Of a stretch of DNA of 64,000 bases, positions 9,291-16,478 are shown piece by piece. The notes under the pieces were generated by a model that saw only the letters and a list, made by a program, of their open reading frames with translations, made no database searches and was not told where the DNA came from. The position numbers and the translations under genes were made by a program. Position 1 is the first letter of the stretch, and every line of letters begins with the position of its first letter. This DNA is from Pseudooceanicola antarcticus (lineage in GTDB: Bacteria > Pseudomonadota > Alphaproteobacteria > Rhodobacterales > Rhodobacteraceae): assembly GCF_900215355.1 (NCBI RefSeq), contig NZ_OBEA01000004.1:62001-126000 (forward strand), written 5' to 3'.

Positions 9291-10010
9291 ATGCGCGTGC
9301 TTTTGGTAGAAGATGATCCGACCACTTCGAAAAGCATCGAGCTGATGCTGACCCATGCCAACCTGAACGTCTATACGACCGACCTTGGCGAAGAGGGCAT
9401 AGATCTTGCAAAGCTCTATGACTACGACTTGATCCTGCTGGATCTGGGACTTCCCGACATGAACGGGCACGAGGTGCTGCGCCAGCTGCGCCTGGCCCGC
9501 ATCGAGACTCCGATCCTGATCCTGTCGGGGGCCGATGATACGGAAAACAAGCTGAAGGGCTTCGGCTTCGGCGCCGATGACTACCTGACCAAGCCCTTCC
9601 ACCGTGAAGAGCTGGTGGCGCGCATCCACGCGATCATTCGCCGCTCCAAGGGCCATTCGCAGTCGATCATCCGCACCGGCCGCATCGAGGTGAACCTGGA
9701 TGCCAAGACGGTCGAGGTCGACAGCAAGCCGGTGCATCTGACCGGCAAGGAATACCAGATGCTGGAACTGCTCAGCCTGCGCAAGGGCACCACGCTGACG
9801 AAAGAGATGTTCCTCAACCATCTCTACGGCGGCATGGACGAGCCCGAGCTGAAGATCATCGACGTCTTCATCTGCAAGCTGCGCAAGAAGCTCTCGACCG
9901 CGACCGAAGGCGATAATTACATCGAAACGGTTTGGGGCAGGGGCTACGTGCTGCGCGACCCCGAGCCCGAACATATCGACGAAAAGAAGATGGCACTCGG
10001 GGCGGGGTGA
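9291..10010 (+). CDS. ctrA: Cell-cycle response regulator CtrA
   Basis: OmpR-type master regulator; in Rhodobacterales it controls motility, gene transfer agent and other traits rather than being strictly essential. 239 residues: receiver domain with acidic pocket Glu8-Asp9-Asp10, phospho-acceptor Asp51 ([11 protein letters not shown]) and Lys in [13 protein letters not shown], then a winged helix with the CtrA-typical [10 protein letters not shown] and [13 protein letters not shown] 9291 has GGAGAG eight bases upstream. The C terminus ends Gly-Ala-Gly rather than Ala-Ala, so the Caulobacter ClpXP degron is not obvious. Confidence 0.97.
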
Positions 10011-10065
10011 TCCTGTCTCGGGGCTTACCGCTCACGGAAGACCAAGACCCGTCTGGACGTCATGA

Positions 10066-14636
<4,571 letters not shown>

Positions 14637-14642
14637 ACGCCT

Positions 14643-14701
14643 GACTCTGTGGATAAATCCATTTTGTTCACAAAAGTTCCTAAAAAGTTCTTTACCGACT
14701 C
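14643..14701 (+). promoter_or_regulatory. LexA-type box flanked by two GANTC sites
   Basis: GTTC-N7-GTTC at 14676-14690 matches the alphaproteobacterial LexA (SOS) box. A further GTTC at 14666-14669 precedes it with N6 spacing. GACTC (CcrM target) occurs at 14643-14647 and again at 14697-14701. All lie in the 126 bases between recG and the 40-residue ORF that starts at 14763. No convincing -35/-10 pair stands out. Confidence 0.65.
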
Positions 14702-14762
14702 GGCTCAATATGAGAACAAAAGGGCAACGGAGCTGAACGCTTTGATCGGAGAGGACAGAGAA

Positions 14763-14885
14763 ATGCTGAACGACATTCTTCAAACTGCCCGTCGCGCCCC
14801 CGCCGCTTTCCTTCAGGACCTGTTTGGTGCGGCCGCGCTGGTGGTGCTGCTCGTCGGCTCTCTCTACCTTCCGGCGCTGACCTGA
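14763..14885 (+). CDS. 40-residue membrane microprotein, probably SOS-controlled
   Basis: Not a family I can name. ATG 14763 is preceded by a purine-rich GGAGAGGACAGAGAA stretch that gives a good Shine-Dalgarno sequence. The product begins MLNDILQTARRAPAAFLQDL and ends in a hydrophobic segment (about residues 20-39, FGAAALVVLLVGSLYLPAL), so a short cationic amphipathic N terminus precedes one membrane helix. A LexA-type box lies 73-87 bases upstream and a strong terminator 140 bases downstream. In Caulobacter the 29-residue SidA is an SOS-induced membrane inhibitor of division; the similarity here is in size, topology and regulation, not sequence. An upstream in-frame ATG (14649) lies before the box and is unlikely. 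Confidence 0.7.
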   Translation: MLNDILQTARRAPAAFLQDLFGAAALVVLLVGSLYLPALT

Positions 14886-14920
14886 GCCTCGTTTCTGCCT
14901 GCATGTCGTAGCAAGGCCGG

Positions 14921-14983
14921 GCCTCATTCCCCGATGTGTGGGTAGATGGCCTGTCTGCCCGTCCGGGGTCGCCTCATTCCCCG
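14921..14983 (+). repeat. 13-bp direct repeat
   Basis: GCCTCATTCCCCG occurs at 14921-14933 and again at 14971-14983, fifty bases apart, in the non-coding stretch after the 40-residue ORF. Confidence 0.6.
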
Positions 14984-15021
14984 GAGCCTGGCCCGCTGTC
15001 CCAAGCGACAAGCATACTTCG

Positions 15022-15054
15022 CCGCCGCCTCCCCCCGGAGTGCGGCGGTTTTTT
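15022..15054 (+). terminator. Rho-independent terminator
   Basis: CCGCCGC (15022-15028) pairs with GCGGCGG (15042-15048), followed by six T (15049-15054). It ends transcription from recG and the 40-residue ORF before the converging chemoreceptor gene. Confidence 0.8.
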
Positions 15055-15071
15055 CTTGGCCCTGCGGCCGG

Positions 15072-16478
15072 TCAGAACCGATAGGCCAGCCGCAGCCCGC
15101 CCCAGTGCCGGTTCTTGACGAAGATCGGCACCGAAAGATCCTTCATCATCACGAAGTCGCCGCCGCCCATGTCGCGGCGGTAGACCTGTAGCAGGAACGG
15201 GTCCTTGTTGCGCCCGGCCTTCAGCCCGACGCGGTCGTCGAAGATGCGCCGGTTGCGGCAATGGGCCATGTTCCAGACCGGGTCATCCCCCTGCGGGTGA
15301 GAGAACTTCCGGTTGTGGGTCGGCAGGTAGCCGTTGCGGTCGACGGCGGCGCAGAAGGTGACCTTGCTGTCGAGCTCCAGCGCCTCCTCCAGGATCGGCG
15401 GCAGCACGGTGTCGGTGAAATTGGTGAAGCGGGTCACCACCTGTTCCGGGTCACTGCGCGGGACGGGCCGGTAGTCTGTATCGAAGAGGTCGTCGATCGT
15501 GATGCGTCCCTCGTCCACCGCCGTGTCAAAAAGCTGCGAGATCCGATGCGCACGCGCCTTGGCGTCGGTGATGAAGCGGCTGTCGGCGCTGTCGCCGCCG
15601 GCCAAGACCGCATCCTGCACCAGCGCCTCGGAGCGGTCGCGCAGGCTGCGCACCCGTTCGTGCACGTCCTCGACCGCGCCGGTGCTTTCGCGGATGATGC
15701 CGAAGGTGCCCTCGATCTGCGGGGTATATTCGCGCAGCGCCTTGTCTGCATCGACTGCATCGTCGCGCACCAGCTTCATCCGCGCCACCGAGCGGTCCAT
15801 AGCATCCTTCACTTCGGCGTTGCGGGTGGCGACCTCTTCGCCGGCGCGCGCCAGCTCGCGCGAGGTTTCCGAGACCGATCCCGTTTCCTGCTGCAAGCGG
15901 ATGATCCAGTCGACGAGGCGCTGGATATTGTCGCTGATCGTCTCGGCCGCGGTGCCGGTCTGCTGCGACAGGGTGTTGATCGCATCGGCCACCACCGAGA
16001 ACCCCTTGCCGGCCTCACCCGCCCGCGCGGCCTCTATCTTGGCGTTGATCGCCAGCATGTTGACCTGGCTGGCGATGGCGGCGATCTGGTCATTGCTGGC
16101 CTGTACGTCCTCCAGCACGGTCTCGACATCCCTGGTGCGACTGTCGAGCGTCAGCACCCAGGTCAGCACCGAGAAGGCGTGCTTGCCGGCGATATCCGAG
16201 GTGCGGATCAGGGTCTCGAAGCTGGATTGGGTGTCTTCCAGCTGCCGGTAGGCATCCTGGATCGTGGTCATCACCGAGGCATTCATCTGCAAGACGTGCC
16301 CCGTGCCTTCGCGCACCTGCTTGAGCTGCGACAGCAGCACCTCTGTGCGAGAGGTCAGATCCTCGAGAAAGCCGTCGACATCCACCACCTCCTGTCCGAG
16401 CGCGGAGGCGTTGGTCGCCAGGCGGTCAAGAGAGATCCCCGCCGGTTGCGGGTCGGGGAAGGTCGGGTCGTGTTCCAT
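15072..16478 (-). CDS. Soluble methyl-accepting chemotaxis protein
   Basis: Cytoplasmic chemoreceptor that would signal to CheA/CheW. 468 residues with no membrane segment. The order is inverted: a coiled-coil signalling region comes first, with the hairpin-tip core [20 protein letters not shown] near residues 140-160, and a C-terminal sensory domain follows (about 330-468). That domain ends [20 protein letters not shown], resembling the last strands of Cache/PAS-like ligand domains, and carries scattered Cys and His that might bind a cofactor. No other chemotaxis genes are nearby. The ligand cannot be deduced. Confidence 0.88.

What the first reader, a model, noticed from the sequence alone, without database searches (positions are those of the whole stretch)
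14643..14885. SOS-type box and GANTC sites before a 40-residue membrane protein after recG
GTTC-N7-GTTC (14676-14690) matches the alphaproteobacterial LexA box and sits 73 bases above a well-preceded 40-codon ORF that encodes a single membrane helix. Two GANTC sites (14643, 14697) flank the box. Size, topology and regulation recall SidA, the SOS-induced division inhibitor of Caulobacter, but the sequence is different and it lies behind recG. It could be an undescribed damage-induced division or membrane regulator.
Basis: partly seen in the sequence, partly recalled or inferred. Interest (0 to 1): 0.78.

Follow-up and report, generated by a model that had tools for sequence, protein, structure and literature searches.

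The report
LexA-box membrane microprotein with folded RNA
Most genomes examined in one bacterial family share a tiny unclassified gene that sits behind a DNA-damage-type control site, appears to make a 40-residue membrane protein and ends in a conserved folded RNA, which makes it a candidate new part of the bacterial DNA-damage response.

Summary
Alone, the box is at chance level (genome-wide 70 matches, reversed control 69), and the GANTC pair is not conserved (3 of 106 loci). Comparison settles the rest. A profile matches 182 of 198 family genomes (167 at E<=0.001); recG lies beside the ORF in 105 of 106 distinct loci, and all 106 have exact GTTC-N7-GTTC upstream. lexA (30 of 30) and recA (24 of 30) carry the same box on the other strand. 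One helix face (D19, G22, L26, L30, L34, P37) is 89-100% conserved in 209 peptides. Best reading: a LexA-repressed, damage-induced unit making a membrane microprotein with a specific partner, perhaps the divisome as SidA does, plus a regulatory RNA. LexA binding, translation and function are untested; RNA pairing with ftsZ was not above chance.

The parts
14666..14690 (+). Three GTTC half-sites in tandem (14666, 14676, 14687); the last two form the LexA-type box GTTC-N7-GTTC at 14676-14690
   Evidence: box exact in 106 of 106 distinct protein-found loci, the extra first GTTC in 96 of 106; same box on the other strand before lexA 30 of 30 and recA 24 of 30
14691..14695 (+). Probable -35 element TTTAC directly after the box
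   Evidence: Conserved block; TTGAC or TTGCC in some relatives printed; role inferred
14714..14728 (+). GAAC-N7-CAAC, a LexA-like site one base off consensus, 23 nt after the box, probably over the -10 and transcription start
14748..14754 (+). Shine-Dalgarno-like GGAGAGG
   Evidence: GGAG, GAGG or AGGA within 20 nt before the start in 95 of 106 loci
14763..14885 (+). 40-residue single-pass membrane protein MLNDILQTARRAPAAFLQDLFGAAALVVLLVGSLYLPALT (stop codon included in the coordinates)
14891..15027 (+). Conserved structured RNA in the 3' UTR: 5' tail CUGCCU, long closing stem, three inner hairpins with UGCCU, UGCCUCAU or C-rich loops, bulge with GUCCC
   Evidence: Model R2 match G000:C10:76891-77027 = window 14891-15027, E 7.4e-10, the only match in this genome at E<=1; covariation; loops
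15022..15054 (+). Intrinsic terminator: GC-rich stem followed by T6
12546..14636 (+). recG, the constant neighbour upstream (not part of the unit; the promoter lies after its stop codon)
   Evidence: RecG equivalog 1087.5 bits; recG match on the same fetched stretch in 105 of 106 distinct protein-found loci, missing in L237

Best explanation
A family-wide SOS transcription unit (Rhodobacteraceae, judged from the record titles). In undamaged cells LexA sits on the direct-repeat box next to the -35 region and keeps the promoter shut (inferred, about 85% likely). DNA damage removes LexA and a short RNA of roughly 330 nt is made (start of transcription inferred). Its ORF is translated (about 95% likely) into a 40-residue inner-membrane protein, mostly one long helix, N end in the cytoplasm (inferred), whose conserved face D19-G22-L26-L30-L34-P37 docks on a specific membrane partner (inferred, about 70%). 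The most likely partner class is the late divisome (FtsW/FtsI/FtsN), so that it would delay division as SidA does in Caulobacter (about 40%, by analogy only). The 3' UTR is a structured RNA whose repeated UGCCU and GUCCC loops bind another RNA or a protein (conserved structure shown; activity in trans inferred, about 50%).
For: Protein profile: 182 of 198 genomes of the family at E<=1, 167 of them at E<=0.001; in a 190-genome class draw, 3 family genomes matched strongly and 16 others weakly (E 0.005-0.09; 15 of the 16 inside frames of 226 aa or more, one in a 35-aa frame). Box exact in 106 of 106 distinct protein-found loci. lexA carries GAACN7GAAC in 30 of 30 and recA in 24 of 30 upstream windows, against 1 of 60 in-gene control windows, and that one only in the loosened CAAC form. 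In a 41-genome draw, 3 of 4 genomes without a lexA match lack the ORF, against 3 of 37 with one (G029 with E 0.91 counted as lacking, G068 as having because; hypergeometric about 0.007 by hand; genome completeness confounds it). Helix face in 209 peptides: D19 208 (one E), G22 209, L34 99%, P37 97%, L26 96%, L30 89%. AlphaFold2: helix 2-11 and 13-39, mean pLDDT 87. RNA: mean folding z -2.85 over 161 of 195 UTRs that could be cut cleanly, terminator removed; native stem arms -28.4 against -21.4 kcal/mol when swapped between genomes (156 UTRs); cells paired 86.6% against 57.1% shuffled, cells changed on both sides 777 against 248.5, covariation 0.565 against 0.165; 76 of 76 and 82 of 82 model matches start just behind the ORF on its strand.
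Against: No binding, expression or phenotype data. Spacer and flanks of the box are conserved far beyond what lexA and recA show, so another factor may act as well. The second site is one base off in nearly all loci. Of 16 family genomes without a protein match, 12 have lexA, and none of 13 of those 16... is shown to keep the promoter: a 20-base promoter pattern with up to 3 mismatches was absent from all 16, so the unit is dispensable. The divisome target is analogy. Pairing of the UTR with the ftsZ start is not above chance (mean z -0.46, n=12). Only 55 of 156 UTRs have their own 3' arm among the best 5% of partners. The number of pairs with two-sided changes (41 of 41) is hardly above shuffles (37.0). 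Model R1 missed 24 of 100 loci and R2 18 of 100; the UTR is much shorter in some relatives.
Confidence: 0.6

Rival explanations
1. A TisB-like membrane toxin: a damage-induced peptide that depolarises the membrane and drives dormancy.
For: SOS-type box, small size, membrane helix. [quoted passage not shown]
Against: TisB needs K12, Q19 and a positive C terminus (abstract). Here the tail after the hydrophobic stretch has no net charge in 204 of 205 peptides and conservation marks one helix face, which fits a specific partner better than a pore. An antisense RNA antitoxin was not looked for.
Confidence: 0.12
2. The promoter answers mainly to a regulator other than LexA that uses GTTC repeats; SOS control is secondary or absent.
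For: Conservation covers about 75 bp including the A-rich spacer and GAGAACAAA...GCAACA, whereas spacers at lexA and recA vary. G073, without a lexA match (86% complete), still has the protein.
Against: The only positions invariant in all 106 loci are the two GTTC of the box, and the same box marks lexA and recA in the family.
Confidence: 0.12
3. The RNA is the main product and the ORF an accessory; the RNA works like DinR of Klebsiella, the 3' RNA of an SOS mRNA that silences ftsZ.
For: Covariation, exposed repeated loops, own terminator. DinR is a precedent (PMC10907235, passages).
Against: The ORF is under protein-level selection. Pairing with the ftsZ start was not above chance (a crude duplex test).
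Confidence: 0.12
4. The locus is the known RSP_7527/UdsC small mRNA of Rhodobacter sphaeroides.
For: Same anatomy: a 300-nt mRNA for a small hypothetical protein with a 3' UTR sRNA (PMC6238624 section 7; PMC9779115 and PMC8625941, passages).
Against: In genome G096, whose seven contig lengths equal those I recall for R. sphaeroides 2.4.1, our ORF lies at 1,264,762; at the published RSP_7527 start, 1,289,874, lies a different small ORF.
Confidence: 0.01
5. Chance box before a spurious ORF.
For: Box count in the genome equals the reversed control.
Against: 106 of 106 box conservation, codon-position bias, near-invariant residues.
Confidence: 0.005

Closest known systems
SidA of Caulobacter crescentus, 29-residue SOS-induced division inhibitor (PMC4211646 and PMC12700426, passages)
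   Same: Very small inner-membrane protein under LexA-type control; the Caulobacter SOS box is also given as GTTCN7GTTC (PMC6237742, passage)
   Different: 40 instead of 29 residues; constant place behind recG; structured 3' RNA; no similar small gene was found in the class outside its own family. Binding to FtsW and a block of division are untested here
[quoted passage not shown]
   Same: Small SOS-type mRNA whose 3' end carries an RNA of its own
   Different: No ftsZ pairing above chance here; the fold here is conserved over many genera, whereas the DinR pairing stretch is described as specific to Klebsiella; no processing data here
TisB of Escherichia coli (PMC11449926, abstract and outline)
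   Same: Small membrane peptide linked to DNA damage
   Different: Lacks the positive C terminus that TisB needs; conservation on one helix face
UdsC/RSP_7527 of Rhodobacter sphaeroides (PMC9779115 and PMC8625941 passages, PMC6238624 passages and section 7)
   Same: Small mRNA with a 3' UTR-derived RNA in the same bacterial family
   Different: Different locus and protein; reported as RpoHII-dependent
ChvR of Caulobacter (PMC6237742, passages)
   Same: Alphaproteobacterial RNA that rises on DNA damage
   Different: Controlled by ChvI-ChvG; that paper reports no SOS box near the start sites of its mitomycin-induced sRNA genes

Membership tests
LexA (SOS) regulon of this bacterial family | Conserved LexA box of the family's type in the promoter | tested here: met
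   106 of 106 distinct protein-found loci; box type calibrated on lexA 30 of 30 and recA 24 of 30
LexA (SOS) regulon of this bacterial family | LexA encoded in the genome | tested here: met
   G000 has a lexA match over the cut-off, E 4.2e-49
LexA (SOS) regulon of this bacterial family | LexA binding and induction by damage | not testable with these tools
   Needs a footprint and RNA measurement
SidA-type division inhibitors | Very small single-pass membrane protein | tested here: met
   40 aa; best 18-residue hydropathy 2.16 on average over 205 peptides; predicted helix 13-39
SidA-type division inhibitors | Sequence relationship to SidA | not tested
SidA-type division inhibitors | Binds FtsW or FtsN and blocks division | not testable with these tools
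   Needs two-hybrid and overproduction tests
DinR-type SOS 3' UTR sRNAs | RNA of its own at the 3' end of an SOS-type mRNA | tested here: inconclusive
   Conserved structure and terminator shown; processing and stability not testable here
DinR-type SOS 3' UTR sRNAs | Base-pairs with the ftsZ start region | tested here: not met
   Mean z -0.46, n=12 of 17 genomes listed; lexA -0.02, n=11 of 15; own ORF 0.00, n=12; crude duplex test
[quoted passage not shown]
   Tail without net charge in 204 of 205 peptides
UdsC/RSP_7527 | Same locus | tested here: not met
Any family of Rfam, Pfam, NCBIfam or PHROGs | Match over the library's threshold | tested here: not met
   Rfam: 0 at gathering in the window, best in 14500-15200 sX13 with 19.8 bits against 50; Pfam: 0 of 27 members; NCBIfam: 0 for the window protein only; PHROGs: best E 0.042 among 27 members

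The most novel reading that the evidence does not exclude
A two-armed SOS checkpoint of Rhodobacteraceae: one LexA-controlled transcript delivers both a membrane microprotein that brakes the divisome and a multi-loop RNA that captures a partner RNA or protein through repeated UGCCU and GUCCC loops, so that DNA damage acts at the membrane and after transcription from one unit of about 330 nt.
Probability: 0.3. Interest if true: 0.88.

Novelty: new variant of a known kind. Interest (0 to 1): 0.74.

Why it matters
The one paper on a LexA network of this bacterial family that I opened (PMC6473078, passages) names lexA, recA, dprA, gene-transfer, flagellar, pilus and c-di-GMP targets and does not contain the words recG or SidA. 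The unit found here is in most genomes of the family examined, carries the LexA-type box in every one of 106 loci examined, and matches nothing in the libraries searched. If LexA controls it, it is a testable candidate for how these cells pause after DNA damage, and it adds a new structured RNA.

Tried and rejected
GANTC/CcrM control: rejected, the pair occurs in 3 of 106 loci. Significance of the box from this genome alone: fails. CcsR-like anti-Shine-Dalgarno RNA (motif recalled): CCTCC occurs in 48 of 195 UTRs against 75-89 in shuffles, CCTCCTCCC in 1 of 195. RNAalifold on a plain alignment of 22 UTRs found only the terminator, since the stems misalign; a covariance model was needed. An ungapped 12-nt stem test was weak (8.16 against 7.65 pairs; 24 against 7 of 170 with 10 or more pairs); the duplex test that allows bulges was clear on average. 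ftsZ pairing: not above chance. UdsC: different locus. Plasmids: no match. Solved structures: best E 1.1. Four viral contigs hold the promoter pattern without ORF or recG. Literature: ten searches listed no paper that I recognised as describing this ORF or RNA; most listed papers were seen only as listings. Of ten papers opened I saw passages, the abstract and outline of PMC11449926 and the whole of section 7 of PMC6238624.

Full report
What was checked. The box GTTCCTAAAAAGTTC (14676-14690), the GANTC sites (14643, 14697) and the 40-residue ORF (14763-14885) are in the sequence as described. recG (12546-14636) ends just before them. In this genome alone the box proves nothing: 2 matches in the window against 0.96 expected, 70 in the genome against 69 for the reversed pattern.

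The protein family. A search of 60 relatives with the single sequence matched 36 at E<=1. A profile of 27 members (A1) matched 182 of 198 genomes of the family at E<=1, 15 of them weaker than 0.001. Some weak matches may be chance, and some misses are not real: the first look scored at most 37 candidates a genome, and genome G068 (profile E 0.183) has a divergent ORF of the same build behind the same kind of promoter. In a 190-genome draw from the class, three family genomes matched strongly and 16 others weakly (E 0.005-0.09), 15 of these inside frames of 226 aa or more and one in a 35-aa frame. No match was found in Pfam (27 members), NCBIfam (window protein) or plasmids; PHROGs gave at best E 0.042 and solved structures E 1.1. 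Differences between ORF pairs fall 416:200:1018 on codon positions 1:2:3 (66 pairs; upstream control 273:238:206), which shows protein-level selection. Over 209 peptides, G22 is invariant, D19 holds in 208, and L26, L30, L34 and P37 are 89-99% conserved, with T15 81% and R11 79%. They lie three or four residues apart, on one face of the helices that AlphaFold2 predicts at 2-11 and 13-39 (mean pLDDT 87, pTM 0.48).

The promoter. Of 106 distinct loci found by the protein, all 106 have exact GTTCN7GTTC starting 68-115 nt before the ORF; a third GTTC precedes it in 96, GAAC follows at 22-24 nt in 103, and GAACN7[CG]AAC in 96, perfect in 1. Rows L030 and L091-L097, hits from outside the family, were dropped before the count; L091 and L093 had passed the re-scan and have no box. 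Loci found by the promoter pattern were left out of this count because they carry the box by construction. Calibration: upstream windows of lexA carry GAACN7GAAC in 30 of 30 and of recA in 24 of 30; of 60 in-gene control windows one had a site, and only in the loosened CAAC form. Two facts cut the other way: the spacer (mostly TTAAAAA or TCAAAAA) and flanks are conserved far beyond what lexA and recA show, and the second site is one base off. I read the extra conservation as promoter or upstream-element sequence, but a second regulator is possible.

Co-occurrence with lexA. In a 41-genome draw, 3 of 4 genomes without a lexA match lack the ORF, against 3 of 37 with one (G029 counted as lacking, G068 as having). 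Three of the four lexA-less genomes are 74-86% complete, so this is weak. Of the 16 family genomes without a profile match, 4 lack lexA and 12 have it; none of the 16 has the promoter pattern within 3 mismatches.

The 3' UTR. A terminator was recognised in 195 of 212 loci, at a median of 173 nt after the start of the stop codon. CTGCC[TC]GC occurs in 130 of 195 UTRs (7-10 in shuffles, 0 on the other strand), CTGTCC in 165 (14-25; 1 on the other strand). The window's UTR folds with z -3.73, 0 of 200 shuffles as stable. For 161 of the 195 UTRs that could be cut cleanly, with the terminator removed, mean z is -2.85, and 97.5% have six or more pairs between the first 35 and last 40 nt, against 44% of shuffles. 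For 156 UTRs, closing arms of the same genome pair at -28.4 kcal/mol, against -21.4 when arms are swapped between genomes (20 swapped sets: -22.0 to -20.7); single UTRs are less telling, with 55 of 156 in the best 5% of partners.

Covariance models. A model from 5 UTRs matched 76 of 100 loci at E<=1, 61 of them below 0.01, the 5 seeds included. On that alignment 86.6% of cells pair (57.1% shuffled), 777 cells have two-sided changes (248.5 shuffled), and covariation is 0.565 against 0.165 shuffled and 0.03-0.06 for slid structures; 41 of 41 pairs have a two-sided change, but shuffles give 37.0. The alignment is fitted to the structure, so the slid control flatters it; the swapped-arm test does not use that alignment. 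A second model from the 76 matched 82 of 100 loci, 58 below 0.01; these were 100 of the 118, some from species also in the training set, and three of them Bacteroidota. All 76 and all 82 matches start within -10 to 150 nt of the ORF stop on its strand. The second model has one match in this genome, window 14891-15027, and in a 96-genome class draw, with stricter filters, two family matches and one weak match outside (E 0.028). Unpaired parts show UGCC in the 5' tail (72 of 76), GCCU in loop 2 (61) and loop 3 (48), UCCC in loop 1 (47) and the bulge (49). Rfam has no match at gathering in the window.

How it probably works. Shown: an ORF under protein selection, a box of the family's LexA type, a conserved structured RNA, a terminator. 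Inferred: LexA repression, induction by damage, membrane insertion with the N end inside, docking on a partner by the conserved face, and action of the RNA in trans. The nearest working model for the protein is SidA, a 29-residue SOS-induced inhibitor that interacts with FtsW (PMC4211646, passages). [quoted passage not shown] a crude duplex test gave no sign that this RNA pairs with the ftsZ start. TisB-like action is less likely because the positive C terminus that TisB needs is absent (PMC11449926 abstract).

Not UdsC. In genome G096, whose contig lengths equal those I recall for Rhodobacter sphaeroides 2.4.1 (a plasmid search to confirm this found nothing), the ORF lies at 1,264,762 behind GTTCTTAAAAAGTTC and a perfect GAACAATGACGGAAC. 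At the published RSP_7527/UdsC start, 1,289,874 (PMC6238624 section 7), lies a different small ORF.

Verdict. The GANTC part does not hold. The SidA analogy is reasonable but untested. The unit is a family-wide SOS candidate with two conserved products.

Noticed in passing
window 1-64000: GANTC is strongly depleted: 47 sites against a mean of 287 in shuffles, which suggests avoidance of the CcrM methylation site.
   Followed up: no
window 9291-14636: ctrA (NCBIfam CtrA equivalog), ligA and recG lie in a row on the + strand.
   Followed up: no
window 15072-16478, - strand: A 468-aa protein with an MCP signalling domain and a sub-threshold GAF match converges on the unit; a relative of it lies within the fetched 3-kb stretch in 20 of the 29 loci L001-L029.
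   Followed up: partly
window 14648-14656: TGTGGATAA, the reverse complement of a consensus DnaA box (consensus recalled), lies upstream of the box; it is within 140 nt of the ORF in 1 of 106 loci, this one.
   Followed up: yes
L137 600-1150, L146 5700-6160, L394 600-1300: In Rhodobacter-type relatives the conserved 3' RNA is much shorter, with less room for inner hairpins.
   Followed up: partly
L216-L219 (viral contigs): Four viral contigs carry the exact promoter pattern without the ORF or recG; perhaps chance, not examined.
   Followed up: no
L401 100-520 (G096): At the published RSP_7527 start lies another small ORF followed by a terminator-like hairpin and T-run.
   Followed up: partly
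   Followed up: partly
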